From positions 45,519,159-45,583,158 of the forward strand of contig OX031059.1 of the NCBI GenBank assembly GCA_943736015.1: a DNA stretch of 64,000 nt, written 5' to 3'. The position numbers and the translations under genes were made by a program. This DNA comes from Tridacna crocea (lineage: Eukaryota > Mollusca > Bivalvia > Cardiida > Cardiidae). This document shows, piece after piece, positions 8,201 through 50,900 of the stretch (positions are counted from its first letter, which is position 1; each line of letters begins with the position of its first letter). A model generated the notes under the pieces. The model saw only the letters and a list, made by a program, of their open reading frames with translations. It did not search any database and was not told where the DNA came from.

Positions 8201-11200
8201 GGACTATATCTGTCCTTTTGCCTCAAATATCGACGCGGCAAAATGAGGCCAACGTTGTTACAGCTTTGCAGAGCCAAAGAATTGCAATTATAAAACAAGA
8301 CATGGCATGAATCGTAGACCTGTCCCTGTGACCTCGCTGAAATCCTATTAACTCAACCAAACGACAATATTTTAGGCTTGTCCAAATCTAACGCATTAGC
8401 AGACGACAAAATAAAAGTGACTGAAAATTTGACATTTGTTTTGCGAAGGGTAGAAACATTGTGGTAACCGGCATTTTCTCCTTTTCCCACATTGTTTTCT
8501 AAAGGCTTCTTTCTCATGGTCGTCAAAAGTAGAGATTTTGCTGAAATTGGTTGAAGAGGTGTAAATCCTATTGAACAACAAGGGAAAATATCGTAGTCAT
8601 TTGTTTCTTTCTACAGGTTGTTTGATGGTGTTTAGCTGGATGATGTTGGCGTCTGTCGCTGTTGTACTTGCTAGGTATTTCAAGCAAGCCTGGCCACAGG
8701 ATAAACTGTGTGGACGACCAGCATGGTTTCAGGTACGATACCATACCAAAATCTGCATACTATATTTCATGCCTTCCGGTAGGATATCGAGAAATAGCAG
8801 TGAAAATATTTTTCGATCTCACACTGGTTCCACCAGTGAAAATACCGATTTTCACGTTCTTGTTGCCTAGGTAAATTGCGCGTGCCTAACAACCAGATGG
8901 GAAATATGACGCCATATACCTTACATTTCTCGCGCTTGACGTAACGTTGCTATGCGGGAGGGGTACGCCACGGGGAATAAGGGAAAAGAACTGTACTGAA
9001 TTTTGATAAAGCTCCTCCCAGAAAGGGTAAAAAGCATGAAATAAATAGAATATTTGCTTTTTTCGGTGAAAGATCGAAATTTATTTCATCTCGTGAACAC
9101 CATCGGTAATATTTTCACTCGTGGCTGCGCGCCACGAGTGAAAATATTACCGATGGTGTTCACGAGATGAAATAAATTTCGATCTTTCACCGAAAAAAAC
9201 AAATATCCTCTATATATACTTCACGCTTCACACTTGCAATAAACATTTCTTTCTTTTTATTTTACCATAGCGGGAAAAATCGCATAAATGGATTTGTCGC
9301 CTTGGTACTGTCACGTCTTTCAAGCAAGTCTTGCCACAAGATAGACTTTGTGGGCGACCAGCATAATTGAAAGTATTGTAATGCATGTATATGTTTTTAA
9401 GATGTATATATGTATATAAGATATTTCTGTTTCGTCCATTTTCTCTGCTGCAGGTCCATCGATTGCTGATGTTAACTGCGGTGATATGTGTTGCCGCTTC
9501 TTTTATCATTATCTGGTATGACACTGGTAAATACTCAGAGGTAAAGATGCTCATATTTTGTTACATATTTTTCTTTTAACAAACACTTCGAAGCACTATG
9601 GTTGCTTGTTCAAGCCTTTGCACGGGCAAATACTACCAGGTGCGACAGCATTTTTTGTAGTGGGAACCTATCGCTTCTCGCTACTAAAATTTACACTTAT
9701 TTTGAACAGTTTTAACTCTTTACCAAACGACAAAACCTTAGATTGATCCAGATTAAAAGCATTTGCAGACGAAAAAATTAATTTGACTCAAAAATTGAAA
9801 CTTGACTTTTGACGAGTAGGAAACATTGTGGGAAAGGGAGAAAATGCTGGTTACCAGCATTTTCTCCTTTTCTCACAATGTTTTCAAAAGGCTTCTTCCT
9901 CAGGGTCGTTAGAACCAGGGATTGTTTGATAAAGGGTTAAAAGAGCAAATACCTTGGTGTTATATCTGTAAAGAAACCCAAGCAAACAATGGGAAGGCGC
10001 TCTCTTGGCCATATGAAATGAGCGTTTTTTTTTTATATATATAGATAAATAACATGTAATATTCTGGTTCGCCCTGCAGCAAAAGATGAGGTGGCAGCCT
10101 TTTACTGAACGGTGACAAATTATAAACTGTTAGTTTAGTTAAACTCTTTACCAAACGTCAAAACTGGTCCAAATTGAAAGCACTTAAACAGACAACAAAA
10201 CGAACATACTGTAACTCAAAATTCTAAATTCCCAACAGGGTAGAAAACATTGTGGGGAAAGGCCTGAGAAATTGCTGGTTATCAACATTCTCTCCTTTTA
10301 CCACAATGATTTCTAAAGGCTTTTATCCCTGGGTCGTAAAAAACTAGGGATTGTTTGGTAAAGGGTTAGACATACTTATTTCACATCGATTGAGAAACAA
10401 GTTCTAACAACGTATACTAATCTCTCTGGATAAACTGATGCCTTCAAAACATTTTAATATGTTACTAGTAGCTAATTAAGTTTTTGATTTTTAAAAAAAA
10501 CTTCTTCACTTAGCTCAAATGGAGTGCTTCTGTCAAAAAGAAATACCTTCATTTCTTAAGATCATACACCAATAAAATAATCGTTTTCTCAATTTATATC
10601 TGTTTTGTGCCTCTTGTATCCATGTATAAGAGGTACATGTGTGTTCTAAAAGTGGTAGCAGTACATTTAACCCTTTACCCCATAGGAGATTTCTATGGTA
10701 TCTCTTATTGACCCTAAATAACACCAAGGATGAAGTTGTTTCTTATGTGTATATGACACCTTTTGATAGCATAGAAAACATTGTGGCAAAAGGTGAAATT
10801 GCTCGTGACGAGCAATTTCACCTTTTGCCACAATGTTTTCCAAAGACTCCTACAAGCAATGCGTAGAAATGAGTATCTATGGAGTAAAAGGTTAAATACA
10901 TATCTATTGTTATTTTTTTCCAATCTGTAGCTAAGAGGTGCAAGTACATTCCAGCGTGCTCATCCAGTTTTAGGAGTTGTTGTAATGGGCCTGACACTTC
11001 TAAATGTAAGTATCAGTGACGTAGGAAGCTTTTCAAGATTGGGGGGGCTAACTTCGAAATACTGATATTTTTTGCGTGGTTGTTTCATTGCGCTAAGAAC
11101 TCATATTTTAGTTAACTATGATTTTCAAAAATATTGGGGGGGGAGGGGGCTGAGCCCCCCTAGCCCCCCTTGTTCCTACGGGCCTGAGTATGATAACACA

Positions 11201-14200
11201 TGTGGTAAAGTGTAAGAATGCTAACAGCTATTTCAATAGCTTTTCAACAGCGGACAACGTGGATCAGTAAGGGACTTAACTCTTTACCAAACGACAAAAT
11301 TTTAGACTGGCCCAAATTCAAAGCATTTGCAGACTACAAAATCAACGTCAGTCGAAAATTGAAAATTGTTTTGGGAGGGTAGAAAACATTGTGGGAAAAG
11401 GAGAAAATGTTGGTTACCAGCATTTTCTCCTTTTCCAACATTCTTTTCAACAGGCCTCTTTTTCAGGCTCGTGAAATCCAGGGATTGTTTGGGAAAGAGT
11501 TAATTAAAGGCTGGTGCCTATCCGAGAAGGGATTATACCTGAGCTCTGTAAATGCTTGTTTCCCATTTAGAACTGCTTATATTGTTTTATTTTTCCCCCA
11601 AAAGTATGTCACCTACATGGAAAAAAATAAAGTTTAAGATAAACAGCACAAAGACTTTATGGACAACTTTATCCCAATATATCAAAATGTTGAGACAGAA
11701 AATAAGTTTTGACACTGAGACACAAAGCACGAATCCTAATTTCATTCTTATATCAGGACTTTTTGTATGCTGAAAGTGCAACATAGAATTCTTGCCTCTT
11801 TCCTGTTTGATTGATTGATTATTTTCGTTTATTTATCGTCGCTACCGGTTGCCCATCTGAGCGACGCCCCCAGAAGACGGTTAGTTGTTACGGGGGATAG
11901 TGCAAGGATACAGGACGAAACTACTGAGAATTCCGCCTGGTTCTTTAACGTGCTCGGTGTATAGCACCCTCACACGGGACCTCGGTTTAACGTCTCATCC
12001 GAAAGACTATCAATAATTTTTTCAGTTGGCCAGCCGGGAACTCGAACCCACAACCTGTAGAGACCCGAAACATTGTGTTCACGAGTCCTACGCTCTACCT
12101 ACTGAGCTAGTCGGCCGGTTCTCTTTCCTGTTCCTGTGTGTGTATGGATTTGTTTGTGTCAATAGTCGCCTGCCGTATACATAAGTCTATCCTGATCACC
12201 AGCCATGAATGACAAAAAATCACCATATCTCTCTCTCTCTCCCTCTCTCTCTCTCTCTCTCCCAACCAGCCCCAACTCCATGTACATAAATAAGTATAGT
12301 ATTCTTCAAAGATTTTTGTTTGGAAAAACTTCAAGTTTCTTTTTATTTCTAATATAAAAAACAGATCCAAGAAAAAAATACCCTTTTAATGGTACAATGC
12401 AATTTCAAACACACCTGTAGAATAAGAGTTAAAGTGGAAGGTAATTATGTTTATACAAAAATGCATAGAAAATCAAATAAAAAGCAAGATAAATAGCAAG
12501 ATTGTATGCATTACTCAATTATGCCTTTATCAAACATTCGCATATGTAATTACCCGACACTTAACTCTTTACCAAACGACAATATTTTAGATTGGTTCAA
12601 ATTGAAAGCAATTGCAGACGACAAAATAAAACTGACTGAAAATTTGAAATTTGTTTTGTGAAGGATACAACACATTGTGGGAAAAGGAGAAAATGCTAGT
12701 TACCAGCATTTTCTCCTTTTCCCACAATGTTTTAAAAAGGCTTCTATCTCAGGGTCGTAAAAACAGGCATTGTTTGGTAAAGGGTTAACCTTTAGGTTGC
12801 TACTCAATGGCCTTTTGTGGACGGTGTAGATTAAGATCAGACTGCACGGAACGTGTAGTCTGATCTTTGATCTACAATGTCCGACAGAAAACTTTCGAAA
12901 ACAAATGGGTTTTACTATTTTAAAAGTTTCATTTTACCTACGTAGAGGGTAAAGGGTTGAGAAGAAAAGCTTTTGAAAATCTTGTGGGACGAGGGGAAAA
13001 TTGCTTGTCACCAGCATTGTCTCCTTTCCTTACAAGTTTTCTAACATTTCGACCATGGATCTCTATCATTTGAGCAATATTTGAAGAGTCGTCTACAAAT
13101 GCTTCCAGTTTGGATACATTTAAAGTTTTGTCGTTTAATAAAGAGTTAAGGCCGGTGTAATGCAGAGAAATAATCCTCCCCTACAAAATGGCCCATGGGT
13201 CATTTCTCTACGTAGAGGCATGACCTGGGTCATTTCTCTACGTCCCAGGGGATCATTTCTCTACGTAGATTAATGACCCAGGTCATTTCTCTACGTAGTA
13301 AAGTGACTTCTGGGGTCATTTTTCTACGTAGAATAATGACCCGGGTCATTTTGTAGGGGAGGGTCATTTCTCCGCATTACACCGGAAGGATATAATTCTT
13401 TTATCCATTAGCTTACTAGGGACAATATCATGCGTCTATGTGGATATTGAAATACAGAGATCTGATCGGTGGTCTACACATAATAGGGAAAAAACCTGAA
13501 TTTGAGTTTTTGACTCCCGCTAAACTTGGGTTGATGGTTTAATCCTTTATCAGGCGACATACTTTTAGACTTATCCGAATTAAAGATATTTTCACAGAAC
13601 AAATTAAATACAATGCTGGTGACCAACCCTTTGACCTCTTCTGCAATGATTTCATGGATGATCTTTCTCAGAGTCGAATCATTCCAAATAGTTCGTTGAA
13701 GGGTTAACGGACTAAGAGAGATATAGATTTTGGAAGGGCTTGAGTTTCGATGAATAAGAAGAAGAATTTTCTAATCGTTTGCTAAAAGGCTTCTGAATCT
13801 TAAATGATTTGTGCTTAATGGTTGCCATTGGAAACCCTGCCATATCGTATGTTATGATATGAATAGTTCCAAAGTTTGACACAGATATAAATCTAGAACT
13901 TTTGATGTGATGCTTTGATTCTCTATCCGTACACGGCTGTCTCCTGTCTTCTCTACTTTCAGCCTATAATGGCCCTACTGAAGCCGGCAACAGGCACTGT
14001 TTCTCGTCCCATTTTCCGGTACGCGCACGGCTTCATCGGAACCGCTGTTTATATGATTGCAGGTAATTTGTCTACCTTTAATCCTTTCCCAAACGAGCCC
14101 TGGTTTTTACGTGTCTGCAGTAAAAGTCTTTTGAAAACACTGTGGGAAAAGGTGAAATTGCTTGTAACGAGCAATTTCACATTTTCCCACAATGTTTTCT

Positions 14201-17200: not shown

Positions 17201-19445
17201 ATTATCAAACAATTTTCACTGTGAGTTGTCCACTAATAGAAGCAGAAAAGATGCTTGTAGTTGAACATTTCTCAGCGTGTCCGCAGACTTGTTTAGCTCA
17301 CGGCAGCTATTTTTACATATACGTAATGCGCTATTTTTAGAGATGATCTCTTACACAGACATCAGGCTGATGTGTATCCTTGCGGACGAAATGATTGTTT
17401 CAAAGGTTTGAACCGTTAAACAGCTCAGTCTTTATAGACATATTCATTATAACAAAGGCATAATTGTAAATTATTTACAACAGGAAAAAACTGGGTTGTT
17501 CACCGAATAATAAGAAAACTGTTTTATGTCATAAACCGGAACTTGGGACAGGAAGCAGTACAAGGCCGGACGTGTGCTTACGTCACCCCATAGATCAGGA
17601 CGATAACAATGAGAGCCTGTTTGCTACGCAAACAGGCGACTCAAAAATCCTGAAAAAGTTAACCTTAATTGATTATTTTTGATAAATCAGATGACTTTTG
17701 TTTTTTTATATATTTACATACATACATATGGTAAATTTCTGCATCGTTGGTCAGGTAAAGTAATATGTTTTTTGTACATCTTGACTTTCTACAAAACAAA
17801 AAAAAGACAAAGCAGAAGTTACGTTAAGTTTCATTGTTTTTCGAAATACATCTTCTACAATTTTTGAGGAGGATTAGAAGCAAGTATGTTTTGTACAGCA
17901 ATGTCTGGTTTTATGGTATTTGTGGAAGACAATACCACTATGAGTTCAATACTTGAATTTTGAAGACCATGGATCGTATTTTGTGCAAAGCCGAAGAAAA
18001 TAAACCCGATTAACCCAAGTTTTTGGTAGCTTTCAGATATGTAATTTGAAATGGCATGTTAAAATACACTAGGTGAGGCCATCGATCGTGAAAATACCAA
18101 TTTTAGATTGAATATAGATATACTCGCTCATAGCCTTCTATTGGGGCAAGGATTCAAAAGTTGTCTACCGATCGCTTAGTCCTGGGCTTTTTCGTTCCAA
18201 AACCAGTTCGTCACGTAGCTTGTTCAAATACCACTTTAGCGTTCTCAAAGCTTTGATCTTTTTATTGTAAACTGCGTTCTTGTGTGATTCTATATCTGTT
18301 TGACTTTTTTTCCAGGTCAAAAGGCAGCCTATGAGATGAAACAAACTACACCAGTGGAAGAGTCAATGTCTTCTTTAAAGCAAGAACCACCGGTAAGCCA
18401 TTACATGAGTGCTTAGTGCATCTGCGAAAAGTATCGACTCGGGTAAGCTTGCGCAGTCTGCGTAGGCTGACCCGGGCCGAAAAGTATCGACTCGGGTAAG
18501 CTTGCGCAGTCTGCGTAGGCTGACCCGGGCCGAAACTTTTCGCCATAGACTAATTTTCTGTATGTAAACGTACCAATTTACCTCATGATTCAATCTTATT
18601 TTTTTTTAAAGTGGCTCTTATGGATCCCTAATTATGTAATGACATTGGGCTGGTATCATGTATCACGGAGTCGCGATAATCCCCGTTTTGCCAAAGCACG
18701 GCTCATATTGTCGGTTTACTTCCAAAGCCTCGTAACTACAGCATGTTACAAGCTGTAGTTAGGAGGTTTTGGAAATTAACCGACGATATATCCTTTTCGT
18801 ACGGTGCGCATGGGCATCATCCTGTGTAAAGTCGGTCCAATACATCTTGGTGATGCCTTATACAAGGCAAGTAACCATATATTAAGGACCCATATATTCT
18901 TTTGTGTCTAACAAACGACAAATTCATGAGGTAATCTGGTCCTCTGTCATGCAGAAATTTGTCCCAAAGCAAAAAGTTGTCCCAAACCAAGGTTGATACT
19001 TTTCACAGCGTATGTTTCTTATATACTAATGAACAAATTCTTAGAGTTACGAACACTATATGACTTCCAATACGCGAAAAGGGGCATTCGGACAATTGCG
19101 TAAATGTCGTCTCGGATCAGTCTGTGCAGTCCGCGTAGGCTGATCCGAGAAGGCAATTTTTCGATTACCTTAGATTTTGTTCTTCAGTAGACTTGCGCAA
19201 AAACAGAGAATGACATAAAAGCGGAAAGAGTCGTTTCGGATTAGCCTGCGCGAAATGTGCAGGCTAATCCGAGACGACGCTTTCAGCAAAAGTCCGAATG
19301 CCCCTTTTCCCGTGTTGCATGCCATATTATAGAAACGTATTTTCTATCATTACAGGGTATTGTGTTCAAGAAGTCTCTCCTGGCGTTTCACGTTGTCGTT
19401 GTATTCGGTGTTAGTACGACTTGTCTCTTTCTTGTTGCCATGTAA
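1483..19445 (+). CDS. FRRS1: DOMON and cytochrome b561 protein, ferric-chelate reductase 1-like, 12 exons
   Basis: The coding exons are 1483-1539, 2289-2477, 3294-3398, 3789-3942, 4571-4681, 8617-8732, 9454-9540, 10931-11005, 13963-14062, 14534-14674, 18316-18392 and 19356-19445. All introns are GT-AG, phases agree at every join, and the total is 1302 bases (433 residues plus stop). Residues 1-19 (MLLLMFTLGFNVWRTAGTL) look like a signal peptide, which decided the start. Residues 20-168 form a DOMON domain opening with cysteine-rich DCGIERGCF and ending RPWYLLVASG. Residues 169-205 are a linker ending LVKLHG. Six hydrophobic helices follow. His205, His246, His284 and His320 fit the four haem-binding histidines of b561 domains. 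Such proteins move electrons across endomembrane or plasma membranes to reduce ferric iron or related acceptors. Vertebrate FRRS1 also has an N-terminal reeler domain, and none is seen here. The family is secure; the substrate is inferred. Confidence 0.93.
1657..2010. repeat. Family B MITE split by a family A insertion
   Basis: Left of the insert is TTAACTCTTAGGTTG to CAGTCAGTGTACA. Right of it is TATCAGACAGCACGGAACG to TCTATACTGCC. Together they match the family B core. The break falls at a TTAA within the core, where the family A copy at 1708-1936 sits. This makes the A insertion younger than the B copy. Confidence 0.8.
1708..1936. repeat. Family A MITE nested in family B
   Basis: TTAA flanks both ends. 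The inverted ends are CCCTTTCCCAAAC and GTTTGGGAAAGGG. The central palindrome carries the CTGGTAACCAG tip. It lies in intron 1 of the FRRS1-like gene. Confidence 0.92.
2199..2229 (+). repeat. (CT)n microsatellite
   Basis: A run of CT dinucleotides about 60 bases before the exon 2 acceptor. It may also serve as an extended pyrimidine tract. Confidence 0.85.
2718..2825. repeat. Family C MITE, partial
   Basis: A near-perfect palindrome runs from AAAAAGTATTGACTCAGG to the mirrored arm, with tip CGCAGATTGCG. It is followed by the family C tail TAGATGCGTCTAGATCC and CCTTTTTCACAGATCACG. Confidence 0.78.
4020..4248. repeat. Family A MITE
   Basis: It starts at a changed flank (TTATCTCTTTACCACACG) and ends GTGTGGTAATGGGTTAA. 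The central palindrome is intact and has the CTGGTTACCAG tip. It lies in intron 4 of the FRRS1-like gene. Confidence 0.88.
4268..4367. repeat. 100 bp near-perfect palindrome
   Basis: The arms begin GAGAATATCTCC and end GGAGATATTCTC. Inner arms are CCTTACTATGGAAAT and ATTTCCATAGTAAGG, with a second inner stem CAATATCAGA/TCTGATATTG. It directly follows GATCGGACTGCACA, so it probably inserted into, or grew from, a family B core. Confidence 0.85.
4690..5055 (+). repeat. Dispersed repeat X, copy 1
   Basis: It runs from GTTGTCTGCGCATGTCATAT through GGGAAAAGTAGGGCC, AATCGCACCAAGTAACG and GTAAACGTTTATTTCATTTT to CATCTAGCGGGAAATAAT. The same string of motifs recurs in reverse at 52061-52420 and 55908-56735. 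No terminal repeats were found. It sits just after exon 5 of the FRRS1-like gene. Confidence 0.75.
5184..5444. repeat. Family E MITE
   Basis: The inverted ends are TGACTCATCACGCAAAAAGG and CCTTTTTGCGTGATGGGTCA-like. An internal palindrome lies around GTGTCAACCTGG and AGGGTTGACAC with tip GCGCAAATTGCGC. Copies occur at 26048, 32279 and 38634. Confidence 0.85.
5890..6380. repeat. Family C MITE interrupted by family A
   Basis: The left part has GAAAAGGGGGCTTGATG, a decayed core (TGCGCAGTCTGAACAGGCTG) and the tail motif AAATTTTCTGCATTTCTAAG. It stops at GATGCATTAA, the usual TTAA near the right end of family C, where the family A copy at 6122-6351 is inserted. After the insert only TCCCCC-like family C sequence remains. 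Confidence 0.72.
6122..6351. repeat. Family A MITE nested in family C
   Basis: TTAA flanks both ends, the ends are CCCTTTCCCAAAC and GTTTGGGAAAGGG, and the central palindrome is intact. The target is the GATGCATTAA site of family C. Confidence 0.92.
6708..6990. repeat. Family C MITE, full length
   Basis: The ends TATGAGCCATGTTCTGAC..AAAAGGGG and CCCCTTTTTCTCAGAGCACG..CTCATA are inverted. A perfect core palindrome is built on GCGAAAAGTATC and GGTCAGCCTGCGCGG arms. It lies in intron 5 of the FRRS1-like gene. Confidence 0.88.
7162..7530. repeat. TTAA-flanked TIR element (single copy here)
   Basis: TTAA occurs at both edges. Inside lie inverted 17-base repeats GTAAGACCTGTGTAATG and CATTACACAGGTCTTAC. 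The 330-base interior is AT-rich with no ORF. It looks like another piggyBac-type MITE, different from families A and B. Confidence 0.82.
7540..8345. other. Intron 5 sequence without recognised features
   Basis: This is AT-rich intronic sequence. Only a short CATCACTAGTGATG palindrome and scattered A/T runs were noticed. No exon with the required phases was found. Confidence 0.5.
8348..8554. repeat. Family A MITE, internally shortened
   Basis: It starts at TTAACTCAACCAAACGACAA. The left arm of the central palindrome is missing: GAAACATTGTGG runs straight into CCGGCATTTTCTCC. The right end is decayed to GGTTGAAG. Confidence 0.75.
8762..9213. repeat. Dispersed repeat with ~138 bp hairpin (copy 1)
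   Basis: It runs from TATTTCATGCCTTCCGG to AAATATCCTCTA. It contains a long palindrome at about 9061-9198 with arms from TTTTTCGGTGAAAGATCG and tip GGCTGCGCGCCACG. A second copy lies at 20551-21016, outside the gene. It begins about 30 bases after the exon 6 donor of the FRRS1-like gene. Confidence 0.87.
9286..9369 (+). pseudogene. Decayed duplicate of FRRS1-like exon 6
   Basis: The stretch TTTCAAGCAAGTCTTGCCAC to GGGCGACCAGCATAA closely matches the end of exon 6 (8617-8732). In the exon 6 frame it reads FKQVLPQDRLCGRPA then stop, where the real exon has FKQAWPQDKLCGRPAWFQ. The donor site is lost (AATTGAAAG replaces CAGGTACG). Weaker similarity continues upstream (TTGTCGCC..GGTACT). It lies in intron 6, behind the hairpin repeat. 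Confidence 0.8.
9712..9940. repeat. Family A MITE
   Basis: TTAA flanks both ends. The left end is CTCTTTACCAAACGAC and the right end TTTGATAAAGGG. The central palindrome is complete. It lies in intron 7 of the FRRS1-like gene. Confidence 0.92.
10139..10369. repeat. Family A MITE, decaying
   Basis: It begins TTAAACTCTTTACCAAACG and ends GTTTGGTAAAGGGTTAG. The central palindrome has several mismatches (GGAAAGGCCTGAG against CTCTCCTTTTACC), so this copy is older. Confidence 0.85.
10667..10895. repeat. Family A MITE, subfamily 2 (GCTCGT core)
   Basis: It is TTAA-flanked with ends CCCTTTACCCCATA and TATGGAGTAAAAGG. The core arms are GTGGCAAAAGGTGAAATTGC and the exact mirror image, with tip CTCGTGACGAG. 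Compared with the main core (GTGGGAAAAGGAGAAAATGC) several bases differ, and every difference is matched in the other arm. Copies of this subfamily also lie at 46420 and 50694. Confidence 0.92.
11014..11190. repeat. G-rich repeat with inverted ends
   Basis: It runs from GACGTAGGAAGC to GTTCCTACGGGCC, so ends CGTAGGAA/TTCCTACG are inverted. It contains G7 runs and GGGGGGGAGGGGGCTGAGCC followed by CCCCC runs. It starts 9 bases after the exon 8 donor. The G runs could form a quadruplex in one strand. Confidence 0.65.
11276..11503. repeat. Family A MITE
   Basis: TTAA flanks both ends. The ends are CTCTTTACCAAACGAC and TTTGGGAAAGAG. The core palindrome has mismatches in the right arm (TTTTCCAACATTC). 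Confidence 0.9.
11810..12120 (-). repeat. tRNA-derived SINE (type 1)
   Basis: On the minus strand the head carries an A-box-like TAGCTCAGTAGGTAGAGC and a B-box-like GGTTCGAGTTCC. A body with ACGTTAAACCGAGG and ACGTTAAAGAACC follows, with a (TCAA)n/(GATT)n-type tail at the left end. The A-to-B spacing is enlarged, and there is no intact tRNA acceptor stem, so it is a SINE and not a tRNA gene. A second, split copy lies at 32745-33268. Confidence 0.82.
12229..12261. repeat. (CT)n microsatellite
   Basis: A nearly pure run of CTCTCT in intron 8 of the FRRS1-like gene. Confidence 0.85.
12561..12788. repeat. Family A MITE
   Basis: TTAA flanks both ends, with CTCTTTACCAAACGAC and TTTGGTAAAGGG ends and a complete core. 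Its right TTAA is also the left edge of a family B copy (12789 on), so it appears to have used the B element's own target site. Confidence 0.92.
12789..12960. repeat. Family B MITE
   Basis: It starts CCTTTAGGTTGCTACTC, then has GGACGGTGTAGATTAAGATC and the palindromic core GACTGCACGGAACGTGTAGTC. The right part is decayed. Confidence 0.8.
12945..13149. repeat. Family A MITE, strongly decayed
   Basis: Remnants are in order: GCTTTTGAAAATCTTGTGGG, CACCAGCATTGTCTCC, GTCGTCTACAAATGCTTCC, and TTTTGTCGTTTAATAAAGAG ending TTAAGG. Confidence 0.65.
13151..13386. repeat. Family H MITE with CTACGTAG array
   Basis: The inverted ends are CCGGTGTAATGCAGAGAAAT..CCTCCCC and GGGGAGGGTCATTTC..GCATTACACCGG. Inside are about six units of TCATTTCTCTACGTAG in both orientations, so the element is made of short palindromes. 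A decayed copy lies at 57137-57310. Confidence 0.87.
13540..13707. repeat. Family A MITE, decayed, core lost
   Basis: It has GTTTAATCCTTTATCAGGCG, ATGCTGGTGACC and TCTTTCTCAGAGTCG, ending GTTGAAGGGTTAA. The central palindrome is largely gone. Confidence 0.6.
14078..14299. repeat. Family A MITE, subfamily 3 (mixed core)
   Basis: It is TTAA-flanked with ends TCCTTTCCCAAACGAG and GTTTGGGAAAGGG. The core is GGGAAAAGGTGAAATTGC with the mirrored GCAATTTCACATTTTCCC, which is intermediate between the two main cores. It begins 15 bases after the exon 9 donor. Confidence 0.9.
14675..17900 (+). other. Intron 10, left part, largely unique
   Basis: Over 3 kb of intron without a copy of families A to F. 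It holds a (GATT)n/(GATC)n/(GATT)n tract at about 15010-15073, a (GCT)n patch near 14920, and a short GCCTGTTTGC/GCAAACAGGC palindrome near 17613. No coding exon fitting phase 1 was found. Confidence 0.6.
15010..15073. repeat. (GATT)n(GATC)n(GATT)n microsatellite
   Basis: About seven GATT units, then GATC units, then GATT units again. The GATC part is a self-complementary tetranucleotide run. Confidence 0.9.
17905..18235 (+). repeat. Dispersed repeat Z, copy 1
   Basis: Motifs GAACTCA/TTCAATA, TTTTGTGCAAAGCCGAAG, GGCCATCGATCGTG, AATACCA and GGGCTTTTTCGTTCCAAAAC recur in reverse at 40445-40800. Ends were not defined. Confidence 0.65.
18404..18709. repeat. Family C MITE with its half-core duplicated in tandem
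   Basis: A ~58 base unit (GCGAAAAGTATCGACTCGGG to GGCTGACCCGGGCC) occurs twice back to back at about 18425-18530. It is then followed by the family C body and the right end CAAAGCACGGCTCATA. It begins about 12 bases after the exon 11 donor of the FRRS1-like gene. Confidence 0.82.
18711..18783. repeat. 73 bp palindrome (CTCGTAACTACAGC type)
   Basis: The arms are TCGGTTTACTTCCAAAGCC and GGTTTTGGAAATTAACCGA. The inner stem is TAACTACAGC../..GCTGTAGTTA. It starts one base after the family C copy. Related palindromes lie at 36491-36570 and 42268-42345. Confidence 0.8.
19062..19326. repeat. Family D MITE, full length
   Basis: The ends are CAATACGCGAAAAGGGGC and GCCCCTTTTCCCGTGTTGC. There are two core palindromes: TCTCGGATCAGTCTGTGC with its mirror, and TTTCGGATTAGCCTGCGCG with its mirror. 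It ends about 30 bases before the acceptor of the last FRRS1-like exon. Confidence 0.88.
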
Positions 19446-19456
19446 TAGATGATTGT

Positions 19457-22034: not shown

Positions 22035-22420
22035 TTCTGTGAAAAGAGCGCGCAGGCTGTCCTGGGCCGAAACTTTTCGGTACTGGTCAATTTATTGCAT
22101 GTCTAAGGACCAGTCTATACCATGATTAAGCTGATTGTATGGGTATTATGGATCCATAAGTATTTTATAGCTAGCTTGGTTCCATGGATCACGAAGATGC
22201 ATTGAGCCTTTCCCAAACAAGCCCTGGTGATTACGTGTCTGAAGTACAAGTCTTTTGAAAACACTGTGGGAAAAGGAGAAATTGCTCGAAACGAGCAATT
22301 TCTCCTTTTCCCACAGTGTTTAAAATTGTTGTCTGCAAACTCTGTCAGTTTGGAAGAGTCTAAGATTTGTCGTTTGGGAAAGGGTTAAGCCCCTTTTTGT
22401 CAGAGCACAGGTTCATTTAC
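22035..22420. repeat. Family C MITE interrupted by family A
   Basis: The left part has GCGCAGGCTGTCCTGGGCC, the CATGTCTAAGGACCAGTCTA body and ATCACGAAGATGCATTGAGCC. The right end AAGCCCCTTTTTGTCAGAGC follows the family A insert at 22200-22388. The insertion site equals that of 6122. Confidence 0.8.
22200..22388. repeat. Family A MITE, subfamily 4 (GCTCGAAACGAGC core), nested in family C
   Basis: It ends GTTTGGGAAAGGGTTAA. The core is GGGAAAAGGAGAAATTGC with a perfect mirror and tip CTCGAAACGAG. The left TTAA has changed to TTGA. Confidence 0.88.
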
Positions 22421-22610: not shown

Positions 22611-22619
22611 TTTATAAGA

Positions 22620-26685: not shown

Positions 26686-26775
26686 TTGAGAAAACGGACG
26701 GTATAGATCCAAGATCAGATTGCGCATTTTGTGCAATCTGATCTTTGTCGATACCGTCAGCAAAAGTCTCTGTCT
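26686..26775. repeat. Family B MITE, core and flanks
   Basis: ACGGACGGTATAGATCC, then AGATCAGATTGCGCATTTTG with its mirror and GTCGATACCGTCAGC. Both arms changed together relative to other copies (TTGCGCA where most have CTGCACG). Confidence 0.78.
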
Positions 26776-32278: not shown

Positions 32279-32537
32279 AAATGTGACCCATCACCAAAAA
32301 AGAGAGCTTGAACCGCGAAAAGTGTCAACCCTGGTCAGACTGCGCAAATTGCGCAGTCTGACCAGGGTTGACACTTTTTGCTTTAATGACATTTTCTGTA
32401 TGAAACGTGGTCATTATACCTTGTTATACAATCATTTTTGAATTATCAACTTAAACTGACCTGCACTATCGGTGATCTGTTTTCATCTAATTGACGAACA
32501 GAATTCCAAGATGGTCCCTTTTTGAGTGATCGGTCAC
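32279..32537. repeat. Family E MITE, full length
   Basis: Ends GTGACCCATCACCAAAAAAG and CCCTTTTTGAGTGATCGGTC. A perfect palindrome is built on GTGTCAACCCTGGTCAGAC with tip GCGCAAATTGCGC. Confidence 0.9.
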
Positions 32538-37300: not shown

Positions 37301-37309
37301 TGAGCAAGT

Positions 37310-37760
37310 GAGCTATGCTCTTTGACAAAGTGGTAAATGCTCCCGCAGATTGCATCGACCGATATCAGCTTGCGCGGACTGCCTAAGCTGACATGAAAAG
37401 AGACTATATGCTATCGGTCAATTTTCTGCATGTTAAAGAGCCGTTCTACTTCGTGTTCAACGCGTTTTCAGATAAAATCAAGCCATATCATTCAATGGCA
37501 TGCTTGGTATAGCACAATGCAGATATGCATAAACTCTTTCTCATACAATGACGACTTTTGACGAGCCTGTGGTAGAAGACTTTTGAAAACACTGTGGGGG
37601 AAAAGGAGAAAATGCTGGTAACCAGCATTTTCTCCTTTTTCCCACAATGTTTTCAGTCACATTTTTTTTTTATTTGTCGTCTGCAAATGCTTTTAATTTG
37701 GACTACTCTATGAATTTGTCGTTTGGTAAGAGTTAAACTCTTCTTTCCCAGAGCAAGGTT
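37310..37760. repeat. Family C MITE interrupted by family A
   Basis: Left part: GTGAGCTATGCTCTTTGAC, core ATCAGCTTGCGCGGACTGCC, AAATTTTCTGCATG-like body and GCAGATATGCATAAACTC. Right part after the insert: AAACTCTTCTTTCCCAGAGC. The insertion site is again the TTAA before the right end. Confidence 0.78.
37530..37736. repeat. Family A MITE nested in family C
   Basis: Ends CTCTTTCTCATAC and TTTGGTAAGAG with TTAA at the right. The core palindrome has one extra G and T in the arms (GTGGGGGAAAAGG, CCTTTTTCCCAC), so the two arms lengthened together. Confidence 0.88.
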
Positions 37761-42267: not shown

Positions 42268-42345
42268 CTGTTTACTTCAAAATCCTCGCAACTTTAGCTT
42301 GTAACAAGCTGTAGTTACAAGCTTTTCGTTGAGCCGTTTGGAACT
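42268..42345. repeat. Palindrome related to 18711 and 36491
   Basis: GTTTACTTCAAAATCCTCGC, then TTAGCTTGTAACAAGCTGTAG and GTTACAAGCTTTTCG. The arms are decayed. Confidence 0.55.
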
Positions 42346-42775
42346 TTCGAGGGTCAGGGTACAGAAGAAAAATAATTTATAAACCCATCTTCACCGGTAA
42401 CTAGGTTTATTTTTCCCGTTTTCTATTAAATATCATCTCTGACGGGAGATGGAATTTTTTTTTTTTTCGATTTCGTTGCACCCCTTGTCTTACTATAAAC
42501 GATATTGAGGGAGTCGTCAATGAGCTATTTATAGAAACTGTGTTAATGAAAGTTCGAGTATATTCGTTATACATGTATATACAGGCGATATATGCACAAA
42601 TGTAGCATAAGTCTTCCATGATCGACCATGGAAGATCTTAATGTTTAGTGATAGACCAATAGAGCTTTAAAAGCCTGTGGTCTCACCAAATTTGTGTGCT
42701 GTACACTTGTTTTTCAAGAGATTCGTCAATCTGTCATATTCCAGCCATGCTTTATCAAAAGGGCATTTACTGCAC

Positions 42776-42857
42776 AGGTGCCTGACATGTCTGGTATCAT
42801 ACCAACCCTCTATATAGAGGGATGGTATGATACCAGATATGTCAGGCACCTGTGATT
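42776..42857. repeat. 82 bp near-perfect palindrome
   Basis: Arms CACAGGTGCCTGACATGTC and GATATGTCAGGCACCTGTG, inner GGTATCATACCA/TGGTATGATACC and tip CCCTCTATATAGAGGG. Only one mismatch pair was noted. It starts within a family C-like remnant region. Confidence 0.9.
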
Positions 42858-43296: not shown

Positions 43297-43364
43297 CGGA
43301 TGGTATGGATCAAGATCAGACTGCACAGAACGTGTAGTTTGATCTGTGATCTATGCTTTCCGCT
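43297..43364. repeat. Family B MITE, core
   Basis: GGATGGTATGGATC, AGATCAGACTGCACAGAACG and mirror, ATCTATGCTTTCCGC. Confidence 0.8.
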
Positions 43365-43463
43365 TGATCAGTCAAGCTAGTAACATAGAAATCTTTCGGT
43401 TCGTAGTTGATTGGATTTTCAGTCGTAGAAATATGTTGGACATATGTTTTTGGCACTGAAAGA

Positions 43464-43693
43464 ATTAACACTTCACCAAACAACAACATTTTAGACTGGT
43501 TCAGTTTGGAAACGCTTGCAGACTACAAAATAAAAGAAACTAAAAAAAAATGAAGTTTGTTTTCAGCAGGGTAGAAAACATTGTGGGAAAAGGAGAAAAT
43601 GCTGGTTACCAGCATTTTCTCCTTTTCCCACAATTTTTTCAAAAGGCCTTTATAACAGGGTCGTAAAAACAACCAGGGATTGTTTGGTAAAGG
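43464..43693. repeat. Family A MITE
   Basis: Left TTAACACTTCACCAAACAAC, right TTGTTTGGTAAAGG with the last TTAA changed. Complete core palindrome. Confidence 0.9.
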
Positions 43694-43769
43694 TGGGTAT
43701 CTTCTTCATTGACTGATGATTGACGAATTGTCTTTCGTATACCCTTTCATTATTATTTCAGTTACATAA

Positions 43770-43960
43770 CGGCGACAGCTCGCATATTCATGTGTTATCA
43801 GGATTTCAATAGCAGTAGGCAAGAGCCCCGAAGTATCTTACCAATCTTAACCAAGGTAGCTCCCATGAAAAACTCAGTGCTCCCAGTGAGGCACGAACTC
43901 TTGGCCTCCAGGTTGAGAGTCCCCTGTTCTTTACCATTGTACCACGCAGGATCAGAGTAT
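43770..43960 (-). repeat. tRNA-derived SINE (type 3)
   Basis: On the minus strand: CGTGGTACAATGGTAAAGAAC (A-box-like), CCAAGAGTTCGTGCCTC (B-box-like), then a body ending GATAACACATGAATATGCG and GAGCTGTCGCCGTTATG. The motif CGGCGACA after a TTATTTCAG also occurs at 29660, which may be a fragment of the same SINE. Confidence 0.65.
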
Positions 43961-44093
43961 CTTTGTTATATTTAACGATTATGTGGTTACATACTTAAAA
44001 AAAAAAATACTCTTCGTCTAACTCTAGATTAATAAATTTAAATTCTGATTTGCTAAGTCCTCCTCGTTTAGCTGATCATAAATTACGTTATTT

Positions 44094-44322
44094 TTAACCC
44101 ATTACCACAAAATCCCTACTTTTGACGCCCCTGAGAAAGAGGCCTATTGAAAACACTGTGGGAAAAGGAGAAAATGCCGGTAACCAGCATTTGCTCCTTT
44201 TTCCACAGTGTTTTCTACCTTTCCCAGAACAAATTACAATTTTTCAGTCACCTTTATTTTGTCGTCTGCAAATGCTTTCAATTTGAACCAGTCTAAAATT
44301 TTGTCGTGTGGTAAAGAGTTAA
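44094..44322. repeat. Family A MITE
   Basis: TTAA flanks both ends, ends CCCATTACCACAAAATCC and GTGTGGTAAAGAG. Complete core with one mismatch (GCCGGTAACCAGC). Confidence 0.92.
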
Positions 44323-44426
44323 ATCTAGAAAATTCTTGAAAACTGTATTAAGCATTTCATCTAGAATGGTTTGCGAAGGGCCCTGGTCTGTTTTTTTTTT
44401 TAAAAATCTTTCCTCAATTCTATTAC

Positions 44427-44695
44427 TTGGCCTGCAACACGCGAAAAGGGCATATGAACATTTGCGTAAAGCGTCGTCTCGGATCAACCTGCGCAGTCCG
44501 CGCAAGCTAATCCGAAACGACACTTTCCGTTTTTTATGTATTTTTTTCTGTTTTTTCGCATGTCTTTAGTTTAGGACAAAACCTGATGTTGTCGTAAAGT
44601 GCCGTCTCTGATTAGCCTGTGGGCATATCGCAGGCTGATCCAGGACGACAGTTTACCCAAATGTCCAAATGCCCCTTTTTCGTGTTTTCAAGCCA
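44427..44695. repeat. Family D MITE
   Basis: Ends TTGGCCTGCAACACGCG and CGTGTTTTCAAGCCAA. Two core palindromes: TCAACCTGCGCAGTCCGCG and TTAGCCTGTGGGCATATCGC. Its right end touches the TTAA of the next family A copy. Confidence 0.87.
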
Positions 44696-44697
44696 AT

Positions 44698-44926
44698 TTA
44701 ACCCTTTCCCAAACAATCCCTGGTTTTTACGGGTCTGGAATAGTAGCCTTTTGAAAACATTGTGGGAAAAGGAGAAAATGCTGGTTACCAGCATTTTCTC
44801 CTTTTCCCACAATGTTTTCTACCCTATCATAGACAGAAATCGTCTTTTCAGCAAGAGTTGAATTGTCGTCTGCAAATGCTTTCAATTCGGTCTAGTCCAA
44901 AAAAATCGTCGTTTGGGAAATGGTTA
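44698..44926. repeat. Family A MITE
   Basis: TTAA flanks both ends, CCCTTTCCCAAAC and GTTTGGGAAATGG ends, complete core. It lies 70 bases beyond the stop codon of the glycosyltransferase gene and may fall in its 3' untranslated region. Confidence 0.92.
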
Positions 44927-44994
44927 AATAAGGTATCCCCAGTGCATGTTCAAAACACGCTACATGTGGCATATTTTGGTATTTCCGCCTTGTA

Positions 44995-47900
44995 TCACCA
45001 AAGATTTCGTCCATAGATTTTAACACGTGGAATAAGTTTTGAAATAATATTTTCATCCGAGTACGTTACTTTATAAATGTTGGTATGATACCAGGTGTGA
45101 TACGTCAGAGCGTTTTCGCTCAAAGTCCTATCTTTCATACCTCTTGCCTTCCATTTCTCACATATTGCAACTTTATTGGGATGTAGGGTTGTCGTGTTGG
45201 AACATCTATCACGTAACAGACCGTCATTCATCTTTGAGTCGTAAACATCTTGGAAAGTTTCAGACGGTTGTAAATCAGGTAACCGAATCAGCACTCCAGC
45301 CGTCTGGTTTATCTTTCGATACAAGTGGGTCATAAAATTTGGCCCTGTGCAGGTGAAAGCGTCTTTACAGGCTTCAGGATGCTCCCAAATTTTCAAGATT
45401 ATGAGTTTATAGAATGGATGCTGCGGTACACAGAGAAGAGCGGCGTTGGATATCAGCAAGTCCACGTTCCACAGGAAGTAGTGTTCGCCTGGTTCCTTTG
45501 CCAGAGAGCATTCGTGAGTGTTGACGTAGGCATCCAAGGGTTTCACGCTAACGGTGTCTAGGTCAAAATATACCCCTCCATACTCGTGTATCACAAGGTA
45601 ACGCAAGGTGTCGGCACGGAAAAAATTTGAAGTCACTGAAAAGACAAAGGTATGACAATGACATGCGAGCATTTTAAGTTGCTAGATATTACCAGCTACT
45701 GTCGCCCTCCTCCATTTTGCTTTCTTTTGAATGACTACCTTTGAACATATTGTGAAAGAAGAAGATCTCTCTTAAAAATCGGCAAGTTATTAGATGTAGA
45801 ACTATTTCGTATTATGGTCTAATTCTATCCAGAAACAATTGATGTTGGTTGTCCATATTTTACAAGGAAGTTGACTGGTTCAAACATACATGTATATGAC
45901 TGTAGATGAGTTGAACCATAAACCTCTGTAGTTAGCTTTTGCGGACAGCATAGATCAAGATCAGACTGCACAGAACATGCAGTCTGATTCCGATTTATAC
46001 CGTCCGCACACGCATCTATTTTTGCCTATGGCGCGAGAAAGTTCAAGAATAAAACCAATTTCTAGATCAAGAAACCTCATCAAGATGCAAGAAAACGGAT
46101 TGTGAAAGCTTCCTTCTTTTTCTGTATGATGTGGTGCAGTTGTATTTTCTTATTTTCCTAGAACATTGTTGGAAAAGGAGAAAATGCTAGAATGCTAGTA
46201 CCAGTAATTTTTCCTTTATCGAGATATTTTCTAGCTTTTCTAGTTCTATCATTCTAACCACATTTAATTTGTCGCCAGTAAATGCTTTCAAATTTGAGGA
46301 AGTATAAACTTTTTTCTGTCTGCTATAATTTCCCCAGCTGTAGGCGATCTAACAGTCATCTGACTAAAGGAATAACATTCTTTCTGGTAATGAAGTGAAT
46401 TCAATAAATGAATGAACGATTAACCCTTTACCCCATACGGCATTTCTACGGCATCTCTAATTGACCCTAAATGACAGCAAGGGTGAAGCTGTTTTTTAAG
46501 TGTAAATGACACCTTTTGATAGCACAGAAAACATTGTGGCAAAAGGTAAAATTGCTCGTCACGAGCAATTTCACCTTTTGCCACAATGTTTTCCAAAGGC
46601 TCCAACAAGCAATGTGTAGAAATGAGTATCTATGGAGTAATTGGTTAAATGAATGAATGAATTAGAGTTTGACGCCATTTGCACAGCCTATGTCATATCA
46701 AGGCGGTAAACGCGGTCAACCTACGTATGTATTTCCAGGCTTTCTCACACCAGTAATGACACAACTTTCTTTCCAAGCCAATGACTACTTTCCTCTCGGG
46801 CATCAGAGGTGAGAGACCAAAAATAGCAGGAAAGAAAGTTTGCCTCAACCGGGTATCAAACTCACAACCAGCAGGGCCCGTATTCACCTACCATTCTTGA
46901 GAATATTCCTAGTCTTATTCTCCAAAGTTTTCTTTTGTAAGTAACACAACTTCTGATTGGCTAAACCGAATGGTTTAGCCAATCAGATGTTGTGTCACAT
47001 ACAAATGTAGAAAATTCTGGAGAATAAGACAAAGAATGTTCTTAATATGGTTGGCGAATACGGGCCCAGGTCACAAGTAGGATACGCTAACCACTAAACA
47101 ATCAGCCGGACATGAATGAATGATCACTTGTCGCACTACACAATCAAATATTTGTGCAAAATAAAGGAAGTCATTATAACAATACTGATTATAACACTTC
47201 ATTAGTGAGTGGTTGAGTGAGTGATGGATGGAAGGAGGGAATGAAGGAAGGGGAGAACGAACGAACAACGAACGAACGAGCGAACGAACGAACGAATGAA
47301 TGAATATTAGATAGGAAGGCAGGAAGGAAGGAAGGAAGGAACGAACGAACGAACGAACGAACGAACGAACGCATGACTATTAGATGGGCACTTGTGCGAA
47401 ATAAAGGAAGTTATTATAACAATACTGATTACATGACAATCCCTGATATCTACATATACATGTATACAAAATTCAACACATTTACTCCGAACGACATCTT
47501 TTTACGCTTTGTGACCGGAGTACCCTAGAAAACATTTTAACGAAGGGAGGAATTACGTCCATTTTTTACCGCTTTATTGTTCTGCATTTATTGACCTTAA
47601 TTCATAACTTTTTACTTTACATGGATGGTTTCAAAGTCGATTGTCTTTACAATTTTCTGGCGGGCGTCGGTGTTTTTCACCGCACTCCTTTTAAGTAAGT
47701 AAAACTTTCTTAACCCTTTACCAGACGACAAAATTTTAGCCCCGTCCAAATTAAAAGCATTTGCAGACGACAATTTCAGTGTGGCTCAAACGGTGCAACT
47801 GTTTAGTGATAGGGTAGAAAACATTGTGGGGAAAGGAGAAAATACTGGTTACCAGCACTTTCTCATTTTCCCACAATGTTATCAAAAGGCTTCTTGCCAA

Positions 47901-50900
47901 AGGTCGTCAAAAGTTGCCATTTTGTTGTAAAGGCTTCACTTTATTTCCCAACACGCCATTCAGGCAGATGTTAAAGTTCCGGATGTTGCCAACTGAAAGT
48001 AATGGGGGGATTAAAAATCTCCCAAATGGACAGTGCAGATCCAAGATCAGACTGTACGTTCTGTGCAGTCAGATCTCGATCTATACTGTCCGCAAAAAGT
48101 CATTCACGCTCAGCAGCCTCTTTAAACTCTTTACCAAAGGATAATTTTAGACAAGTCCAAATTAAAAGCATTTGCAGACAACATAATAATAATCAAATTA
48201 TCTAATGTATCTCAAATGGTTATTACTGTCTTCGCGATGGTAATAAACAGTGGGGTTTTGATGCTCCACTACCAACTGATTGTTCAGATTTCGAATTAAC
48301 CCATTACCAAACAACAAAATTTAACACTGGTCAAAAATGACAGTATTTGCAGACGACAAAATAAAAGTGACTGAAAATTTGACTTTTGTTTAGGGAAGGG
48401 TAGAAAACATTGTGGGAAAAGGAGAAAATGCTGGTTACCAGCATTTTCTCCTTTTCCCACAATGTTTTCTAAAGGCTTCTTTCACAGGGGCGTCAAAAGT
48501 AGGGATTGTGTGGTAATGGATTAATCCTCTGTTCTACCTTTTTATGCCTTATTGACTTCAAGAGTATCTAAACAGGAAAATATAGGTGATTTTAGCTTTT
48601 CGCAAATCTTTGATAAGCAACAGTGCGACTTCTTGATAATCTTTTACGTACTTTGAATTTACTTTACAACAGTTCAAATCTTCTAACTTCTCCTTAACTC
48701 TTTGCCACACAATCCCAACTTTTAACGACCCTGAGAAGGAAAGCCTTTAAAAACATTGTGGGAAAAGGAGAAAATGCTGGTTTCCAGCATTTTCTCCTTT
48801 TCCCACACTGTTTTCTCTAATTTCCAAATCAAATTTCAATTTTTGATTCACATTTATCTTGTTGTCTGCAAATGCTTTCAATTTGGATCAGTCTATAATT
48901 TTGTTGTTTGGTAAAGACTTAATTAAAGGCCAAGTAAAGGCCAAACTACCAACACCGGTGTCATCATACATTTAACCCATTACCAAACGACAATATTTTA
49001 GGCTTGTCCAAATTGAAGGCATTTGCAGACGACAAAAAAAAAGTGACTGAAAATTTGAATTTTGTTTTGTGAAGAGTAGAAAACATTGTGGGAAAAGGAG
49101 AAAATGCTGGTTAACAGCATTTTCTCCTTTTCCCACTATGTTTTCTTAAGGCTTCTTTCTCAGAGGCGTCAAAAGTAGGGATTGTGTGGTAATGGGTTTA
49201 AAATCTTACCATTTCAAAGTATGGAAAATATGGTAGAGATGACAGTACGATCGTATGTTATTTTGTGGACGGGTCGTATGTAAACATTTTCGCGAGCCAA
49301 GGTTACGATCACTACGTGGATCTTACCTTGGCGAATCGAGCCCGATTTCGAGATTCCCGCGACACGCCCCCTATTGGATGCTGCTTATTATCTCCCTTTA
49401 CATCATATTTCTCATAGCCAATGAAATGTCGTTTTACAACCCGCTTACGAATACAATAATTCAACATGAAGCAATAAACATAAACGTACTTCGACATGCC
49501 ATGGTCAGGTGCTAGGATATAGCCTAAAACATCTGATAAATGATTGGTCACATTGAAACTTTATGTAAATATTGTTCGTCTATGTTTTCTTCGGTAATAA
49601 ATCATTACAGATCCTGCACACATCCACGGAGGTATTCATGTTTACCTTCTATTTTTATAGCGACCCTGTTCTATTTTTATCAAAGATGAAATGTTACGAG
49701 CGATTTGATTTGATGCAGCTAGAGCTAGCTGCAACCAATGAAAATGCGTATGATTATCGAAATCAAGCTCAATCCGCCAAGGGTAGGGTAGCGTAGTGGA
49801 TCGTAACCCTTGACGTGCGAAGATGTATGTAAAAAGGTGACAGAAAAAAGAACGATTTTTAAAATCAGGCAAAAAGCGAACAAAAGACATGCAGTTGGCA
49901 GGTTTTAAACCTAGTTTTGAAATTAATTTCTTTGTCAGCGGTTAACACTTTGACCGACTGTACAATGGCAGATTGAAATCTTAACAACAATAATTTCAGT
50001 ATTTTCAAATGGTATAATACAAATTCGAATGCATTTGAACATCGCAGAACAGAAGAGAACGGTCCTATTATACTAGTATTCGCTGTGTATTTTTCCCAGA
50101 TATCTGATTTCCCGATTAGCGATATTTCACTCTTTCCCAAACAAGCCCGGATTTTTACGTGTCTGCAGTACAACTCTTTGGAAAACACTGTGGGAAAAGG
50201 AAAAATTGCTCGTAACGAGCAATTTCTCCTTTTCCCACAGTGTTTTCTAGCCTATCGGAAAACTTTCTGCCATTCTCATCAAATTCAAAATTGTCATCTG
50301 CAAATACTTTGAGTTTGGGACAGTCTAAAATTTGTCATATGGGAAAGGGTTAAGCCTATGAACTACTGAAGTAGAAACTCCCTCAGAGTTGAATATTAAA
50401 CGAAGCCTATTTCAACGGCTCAAAATACTATCCACTGTAGGAAACTCAAGACTTGTATCATAAGACTTGACCATAGAAGTGTACGAAATAGATCCAAGAT
50501 CAGACTAAACCTTCTGTGCAGTCTGATCTTGAACTATGTCGTCCGTAAGAGCCACCGATTTCGCCAAAAGGGAAAGAAAGAGTTAAACATATTCAGACAC
50601 AATCATGTATGTCATACATTTTAAGGATATATATATAAAGTCATCACTTATACGTGTATAGTACTTTGCCTTATATGATTTCTCTCTCTTTCTAAACCCT
50701 TTACCCCATAAGACAAGGATGAAGCCGTTTCTTATGTGTATATAGCTCCTCTTGATAGTGTAGAAAACATTGTGGCAAAAGGTGAAATTGCTCGTCACGA
50801 GCAATTTCACCTTTTGCCACAATGTTTTCCAAAGGCTCCTACAAGCAGTGCGTAGAAATGAGTATCTATGGAGTAAAAGGTTAACAACTTTTATTTTTCG

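What the first reader, a model, noticed from the sequence alone, without database searches (positions are those of the whole stretch)
10667..50884. Both arms of the family A hairpin change together between subfamilies
The main core (GGGAAAAGGAGAAAATGC, tip TGGTTACCA), subfamily 2 (GGCAAAAGGTGAAATTGC, tip TCGTGACGA at 10667, 46420, 50694), subfamily 4 (GGGAAAAGGAGAAATTGC at 22200, 50129) and a mixed form (14078) differ at several positions. Nearly every difference is matched in the opposite arm. At 37530 both arms also gained a base. Independent mutation would break pairing, so something restores it: arm-to-arm gene conversion, hairpin-templated repair, or selection on the folded form (DNA cruciform or RNA). 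Family B shows the same at 26686.
Basis: seen in the sequence. Interest (0 to 1): 0.72.

Follow-up and report, generated by a model that had tools for sequence, protein, structure and literature searches.

The report
Palindromic transposon arms changing in step
A very abundant small transposon carries a near-perfect DNA hairpin whose two arms differ in step between its main lineages, which suggests that copies with matching arms are the ones that multiply while one arm is now and then rewritten from the other.

Summary
The hairpin is the core of a 229-bp, TTAA-flanked, piggyBac-type MITE (55-bp left body, 67-bp palindrome, 107-bp right body) in a 1.05-Gb genome; 173,858 perfect inner hairpins were counted. 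The paired differences between subfamilies are real: main and subfamily 2 differ at 4 arm pairs, main and subfamily 4 at 3, all matched. The matched gained base claimed at 37530 is wrong (left arm +2 G, right arm +1 T). Two layers appear. (1) Inserted copies decay mostly one arm at a time: 455 one-arm changes against 17 matched double changes (13.5 by permutation) in 125 copies chosen by their bodies. (2) Of 62 hairpin alleles with at least 4 carriers, the 3 both-arm alleles follow body lineages and 0 of 59 one-arm alleles do. Genome-wide, double changes at three partner pairs are 3.8, 5.2 and 27 times the control-corrected expectation; the 27-fold one is mostly one inherited lineage, but G:C to T:A at pair 22 (about 14-fold) is scattered over body lineages. 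Best reading: amplification favours intact dyad symmetry, and rare arm-to-arm templated copying (about 3-5% of one-arm changes at pair 22) supplies paired variants. Both ingredients are known separately.

The parts
48296..48524 (-). Typical main-family element, 229 bp, TTAA at both ends
48403..48469 (.). Its palindrome: 33-bp arms, 1-bp centre, 0 arm mismatches
10667..10895 (-). Subfamily 2 element, also 229 bp, TTAA at both ends; hairpin at the same offset, body far more diverged from main than the hairpin
10774..10840 (.). Subfamily 2 hairpin, 0 arm mismatches, four paired differences from main
46420..46648 (-). Subfamily 2 element; hairpin 46527-46593 has 1 arm mismatch
50692..50884 (-). 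Shortened subfamily 2 element, TTAA altered at its low end; hairpin 50763-50829 has 0 arm mismatches
22257..22323 (.). Subfamily 4 hairpin; 3 arm mismatches
50181..50247 (.). Subfamily 4 hairpin; 1 arm mismatch
14133..14199 (.). Mixed form in a subfamily 4 type body: pairs 21 and 26 paired, three other pairs mismatched
37585..37654 (.). Copy with arm insertions that do NOT match: left +2 G, right +1 T
26696..26760 (.). Family B hairpin (another palindromic repeat), partly paired differences

Best explanation
The hairpins are the central palindrome of one 229-bp piggyBac-type MITE family. Shown: after insertion the two arms decay mostly independently; the hairpin alleles that follow body lineages are present in both arms; and double changes at partner positions are commoner than a non-partner control, one of them recurring in unrelated lineages. 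Inferred mechanism: (a) supply, one arm is occasionally rewritten from the other by template switching during DNA synthesis across the palindrome (quasipalindrome correction), which either erases a one-arm mutation or makes it paired; (b) filter, copies with an intact dyad are the efficient sources, because the palindrome (as extruded DNA hairpin or cruciform, or as a symmetric protein-binding site) helps amplification in cis. Together they make subfamilies look as if the arms change in step.
For: Sample chosen by the right body, not by the hairpin (window plus 18 stretches of 10 kb at one fixed coordinate): 138 copies kept. 62 hairpin alleles with at least 4 carriers: the 3 both-arm alleles cluster by body distance (pair 8 p=0.0005, pair 26 p=0.016, pair 31 p=0.02, uncorrected); 0 of 59 one-arm alleles do (smallest p=0.10). 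Differences between the three lineages compared (main, subfamilies 2 and 4) are at pairs 8, 14, 21, 26, 31: five of five paired; a sixth, pair 24, is a lineage found by a search for double changes, so it was chosen for being paired. On a tree from the right body alone internal branch length is 0.29 for the hairpin and 1.40 for the left body. Genome counts on a 35-mer (pairs 17-33): 173,858 perfect; one-arm and both-arm: pair 22 7,434 and 432, pair 20 16,362 and 2,870, pair 24 2,226 and 281; the one non-partner control run, pair 22 with pair 20 across the arms, gives 243 and 261. Ratios corrected by it: 3.8, 5.2, 27.4. Of the first 50 pair-22 double changes listed 36 are matched, 0.40 expected (p=6e-6). 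T:A at pair 22: 83 hits, four of them one tandem array, against 5.5 expected; the 51 copies read need 42 changes on the body tree, shuffled labels 45.0 sd 2.2, whereas pair-8 C:G needs 7 for 19, shuffled 18.0 sd 1.0. The matched excess is a similar share of one-arm copies for A, C and T at pair 22 (3.0, 3.2, 4.6%), as conversion of existing one-arm changes predicts.
Against: In the body-chosen sample matched double changes are not in significant excess (17 against 13.5; 62 of 300 permutations reach it) and one-arm mismatches keep rising with age, so conversion is slow. The pair-24 excess is mainly inheritance: 7 of 8 fetched copies share one body type, judged by eye. The pair-20 matched copies listed are 43 A:T and 1 T:A of 44, not proportional to the one-arm spectrum. 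Copies matched at pair 22 have more diverged bodies than unmatched doubles, so small old source lineages or exchange of hairpins between copies may contribute. That symmetry helps amplification is inferred, not tested. Hairpin terminal length is 0.54 of the left body's on the right-body tree and 0.75 of the whole body's on the body tree, which the estimated conversion rate does not explain.
Confidence: 0.6

Rival explanations
1. Pure inheritance: a few old master copies happened to carry paired differences and nothing acts today; the recurrent pairs are small unseen subfamilies.
For: Paired alleles at pairs 8, 26, 31 and 24 are inherited with the body; the body-chosen sample shows no significant matched excess; matched pair-22 copies have more diverged bodies than unmatched ones.
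Against: Does not say why the lineage-level changes compared are all paired when one-arm changes dominate otherwise; pair 22 T:A is scattered over body lineages nearly as a random label, and at pair 22 all three derived bases are in matched excess.
Confidence: 0.2
2. Selection alone: pairing is restored by a second ordinary mutation and only restored copies amplify; no arm-to-arm copying.
For: Only both-arm alleles follow lineages; hairpin internal branches are about one fifth of the left body's.
Against: Paired changes at pair 22 occur in scattered copies 10- and 14-fold above double mutation for the C and T forms; selection on sources does not make them in copies that did not amplify.
Confidence: 0.15
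3. Exchange between copies: whole hairpins are swapped among elements by ectopic gene conversion, carrying paired variants into different bodies.
For: The same paired states occur in different bodies; over 170,000 identical inner hairpins give plenty of partners.
Against: Would also move pairs 8, 26 and 31 between bodies, but these follow the body; a similar conversion share for A, C and T is not predicted.
Confidence: 0.15
4. RNA-level constraint: the hairpin is a functional RNA, for example a small-RNA precursor.
For: A 33-bp stem with a 1-nt centre could be processed if transcribed (inference only).
Against: No Rfam match in the one stretch tested, window 1600-11000; several lineage-level changes are pair flips (G:C to C:G, A:T to T:A), which have no G-U path.
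Confidence: 0.05

Closest known systems
CMITE elements of Acropora corals (PMC2872659; abstract, part 1 of Results and one Discussion section read)
   Same: Short elements with TTAA duplications and CCCTTT-like ends, linked to piggyBac-like transposons, with an internal region more conserved between families than the ends; the authors suggest it may help transposition.
   Different: Coral elements are about 100 bp and about 1,600 copies in A. millepora; here 229 bp and at least 173,858 copies with a perfect inner hairpin, and the conserved part is a near-perfect palindrome with paired evolution. Sequence similarity to CMITEs was not tested, and I did not see whether their internal region is palindromic.
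Template-switch creation and maintenance of RNA hairpins (PMC8794818; passages read)
   Same: Template switching can copy one stem arm into the other, giving a paired change or restoring the old pairing.
   Different: There inferred from ancestral reconstruction of RNA genes; here from very many parallel DNA copies with a non-partner control, and beside a separate lineage-level filter.
Inverted-repeat arm homogenisation and spacer inversion in yeast (PMC8604942; passages read) and quasipalindrome mutations in yeast (PMC3820800; abstract read)
   Same: Arms of imperfect inverted repeats are made identical by template switching; spacers can be inverted.
   Different: Here spacer inversion is only hinted at: among 138 copies the centre is A 109, T 17, C 1, G 1, gap 10, but a few other A sites reach a similar T share.

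Membership tests
piggyBac-type MITE | TTAA target duplication | tested here: met
   TTAA at both ends of 48296-48524 and 10667-10895; consensus of 91 oriented copies has TTAA at both ends
piggyBac-type MITE | terminal motif CC[C/T]T | tested here: inconclusive
   CCCTTT in the overall consensus and two of three cluster consensuses, CCCATT in the largest cluster
piggyBac-type MITE | short, non-coding, high copy number | tested here: met
   229 bp; 173,858 perfect inner hairpins; coding was not scanned, the length alone leaves no room for a transposase
piggyBac-type MITE | piggyBac transposase in the same genome with matching ends | tested here: inconclusive
   118 PF13843 matches, several in long open frames; TTAACCC lies near the gene in 7 of the 8 loci fetched (not L028) and as an inverted pair in four of them, but goes on as ATTTATGCC, TTTATATAC or TGAAG, not as the MITE's TTACCA
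CMITE | internal region more conserved between families than the ends | tested here: inconclusive
   main vs subfamily 2: hairpin 58/67, left body 33/54, right body 63/91 aligned identities; the ends were not measured apart from the bodies
CMITE | homologous internal sequence | not tested
   coral sequences not compared
Template-switch (quasipalindrome) correction | excess of matched changes at partner positions | tested here: met
   three of three pairs tested genome-wide; not significant in the small body-chosen sample
Template-switch (quasipalindrome) correction | independent events in unrelated copies | tested here: met
   pair 22 T:A scattered, pair 20 A:T in many bodies by eye; but pair 24 C:G mostly one lineage
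Template-switch (quasipalindrome) correction | spacer inversion | tested here: inconclusive
Known structured RNA family | match to an Rfam family | tested here: not met
   0 matches at gathering scores in window 1600-11000, the only stretch searched

The most novel reading that the evidence does not exclude
The palindrome is a cis licence for amplification that in effect checks its own symmetry: elements whose two arms agree are the ones copied on, while template switching keeps proposing new agreeing pairs. The family is then a hairpin replicator that proofreads itself, and a very large natural experiment from which per-site rates of arm-to-arm templated mutation could be read.
Probability: 0.35. 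Interest if true: 0.75.

Novelty: new variant of a known kind. Interest (0 to 1): 0.55.

Why it matters
How long perfect stems keep pairing despite random mutation is an old question. Here more than 170,000 near-identical palindromes of mixed age sit in one genome, so one-arm mutation, arm-to-arm copying and lineage-level filtering can be measured separately with internal controls. It also points to the palindrome as a part that a piggyBac-type MITE may need in order to spread.

Tried and rejected
Rejected: efficient ongoing correction in inserted copies (no plateau, no significant matched excess). Rejected: a matched base gain at 37530. Rejected as sole cause: one subfamily behind the pair-22 doubles. 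Accepted against my first reading: the pair-24 double changes are mainly one inherited lineage. Inconclusive: centre-base inversion. Unexplained: left arm more diverged than right arm in my alignments (167/2846 against 115/2804), possibly an alignment effect.

Rows dropped before counts: 8 of 152 aligned copies with too little left body; 6 of 144 under 60% body identity; 49 of 138 outside the three clusters of at least 5; 13 of 138 with short hairpin coverage, for the trees; CpG columns; 30 of 140 copies that could not be oriented and 19 of 110 without both ends, for the consensus. L053, L086 and L110 were mistyped or misplaced stretches and were not used; L114 (pair-20 T:A) was left out of the A:T set. 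Of 83 pair-22 T:A copies 51 were read (three of the rest belong to one tandem array); of 44 matched pair-20 copies listed 19 were read; of 41 pair-24 C:G copies listed 8 were read. Listings show only the first places of the genome (contig 1, in part contigs 2 and 3), so matched fractions rest on those. The one-arm base spectrum at pair 22 (55 A, 23 C, 22 T) was counted by eye from the 100 lines and typed into; the age correction of 1.44 comes from one non-partner combination only. Four paper searches were made and only their top rows seen; they do not show that the element or the pattern is unpublished.
Full report
What it is. The window lies on contig 4 of an unnamed 1.05-Gb genome of 31 contigs, the first 18 of which are 40-77 Mb long. 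The family A hairpin is the centre of a transposon. Ninety-one oriented copies with both ends give a 229-bp consensus that begins TTAACCC and ends in GTTAA, with 55 bp of left body, a 67-bp palindrome (33-bp arms, 1-bp centre) and 107 bp of right body. Subfamily 2 at 10667-10895 is also 229 bp with the hairpin at the same offset, so it is best seen as a deep branch of the same family; 14,579 perfect inner hairpins of its type were counted. The genome has 118 matches to the piggyBac transposase family PF13843, several in long open frames. In 7 of the 8 loci fetched TTAACCC lies near the gene, in four as an inverted pair. A piggyBac-type MITE is therefore the natural label, though no element with the MITE's own longer ends was found.

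Observation. Differences between lineages are paired. Main and subfamily 2 differ at pairs 14, 21, 26 and 31, main and subfamily 4 at pairs 8, 26 and 31, each in both arms, while the bodies differ much more: hairpin 58/67, left body 33/54, right body 63/91 aligned identities for subfamily 2; 61/67, 43/55 and 83/107 for subfamily 4. Within single copies most differences are on one arm, and the 37530 insertion is not matched.

Decay after insertion. To avoid choosing copies by their hairpin I searched the window and 18 stretches of 10 kb, at one fixed coordinate on 18 contigs, with a model of the right body only: 204 hits, 151 near full. I aligned 152, kept 144 with enough left body and 138 with both bodies recognisable. 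Over 28 pairs (all but 8, 14, 21, 26, 31) in 125 copies there are 455 one-arm, 17 matched and 15 unmatched double changes; permuting right arms among copies of like age gives 13.5 matched and 20.1 unmatched, and 62 of 300 permutations reach 17. One-arm mismatches rise with terminal branch length (rho 0.69) without a plateau. So inserted copies are not corrected at any large rate.

Lineage level. I tested each hairpin allele with at least four carriers for clustering of its carriers by body distance. Of 62 alleles the three both-arm alleles cluster: pair 8 T>C, 19 copies, p=0.0005; pair 26 A>T, 7 copies, p=0.016; pair 31 G>C, 6 copies, p=0.02. None of the 59 one-arm alleles does, the smallest p being 0.10. 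No correction for many tests was made; only the first would survive a strict one. Another paired change, pair 24 A>C, is a small lineage: 7 of 8 fetched copies share one body type by eye; it was found by searching for double changes, so it does not count as an unbiased case. On a tree made from the right body only, internal length is 1.40 for the left body and 0.29 for the hairpin, terminal length 21.8 and 11.8. The hairpin is thus held mainly at the level of sources.

Partner excess. Exact genome counts use the 35-mer of pairs 17-33. Perfect: 173,858. One-arm and both-arm: pair 22 7,434 and 432, pair 20 16,362 and 2,870, pair 24 2,226 and 281. The one control, pair 22 on one arm with pair 20 on the other, gives 243 and 261 in the two orderings, 1.44 times independence, which I take as the effect of mixed ages. 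Corrected by it, partner double changes are 3.8, 5.2 and 27.4 times the expectation. In the first 50 copies listed, matched are 36 at pair 22 (18 A, 11 T, 7 C), 44 at pair 20 (43 A, 1 T) and 44 at pair 24 (41 C, 2 G, 1 T) (counted from the listings). T:A at pair 22 occurs 83 times; taking one tandem array as one, 80 against 5.5 expected. The 51 copies read come from many body types: on a joint tree with 125 body-chosen copies the label needs 42 changes, shuffled labels 45.0 sd 2.2, while pair-8 C:G needs 7 for 19 copies, shuffled 18.0 sd 1.0. Nearest-neighbour distances within the matched sets are larger, not smaller, than in 67 background copies. In the outer arms of the same 51 copies, which the pattern left free, there are 110 one-arm, 12 matched and 5 unmatched double changes.

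Mechanism. Shown: largely independent decay, lineage alleles in both arms, partner excess with recurrence at pair 22. Inferred: arm-to-arm templated copying as the supply, about 3-5% of one-arm changes at pair 22, and selection for dyad symmetry at amplification as the filter. Results against a simple view: pair 24 is mostly inheritance, pair 20 nearly all A:T, and matched pair-22 copies have more diverged bodies (T 0.224, C 0.255, A 0.205) than unmatched doubles (0.166; p=0.010, 0.011, 0.047), so old minor lineages or exchange between copies may add to the excess.

Known relatives. Arm homogenisation and spacer inversion by template switching are described in yeast (PMC8604942, passages read; PMC3820800, abstract read) and template switching is proposed to create and maintain RNA hairpins (PMC8794818, passages read). 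Coral CMITEs share TTAA, similar ends and a conserved internal region (PMC2872659; abstract, part 1 of Results, one Discussion section read). What is added here is the number of copies, the non-partner control and the separation of copy-level from lineage-level change.

Noticed in passing
window 26696-26760, and 20 further places (some weak): Family B is a second palindromic repeat (arms GGACAGTGTAGATC-AAGATCAGACTGC, about 9-nt centre) found in the window and in 10 of the other sampled loci.
   Followed up: partly
G000:C4:49998260-49999816 (outside the window): Four copies with the paired T:A at pair 22 repeat every 506-508 bp: a tandem array containing the MITE hairpin.
   Followed up: no
L027-L034 and the places: Several piggyBac transposase matches have open frames and identical scores at different places (492 aa, 624 aa), hinting at recent activity; fragments cluster on C8 near 50.4 and 56.7 Mb and on C13 near 4.5 Mb.
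   Followed up: no
window 9041-9215, 647-780, 53338-53469, 42773-42854, 18705-18789, 32315-32381, 2722-2786: Other long palindromes (79-100% complementary arms) that are not family A.
   Followed up: no
left against right hairpin arm: The left arm is more diverged than the right (167/2846 against 115/2804 sites), unexplained.
   Followed up: partly
centre base of the hairpin: In oriented copies the centre A is T in 17 and C or G in one each, as spacer inversion would give, but a few other A sites show a similar T share.
   Followed up: partly
pair 20 of the hairpin: A paired G:C to A:T change is unusually common (2,870 double changes, 43 of the 50 listed A:T) in many body types.
   Followed up: partly
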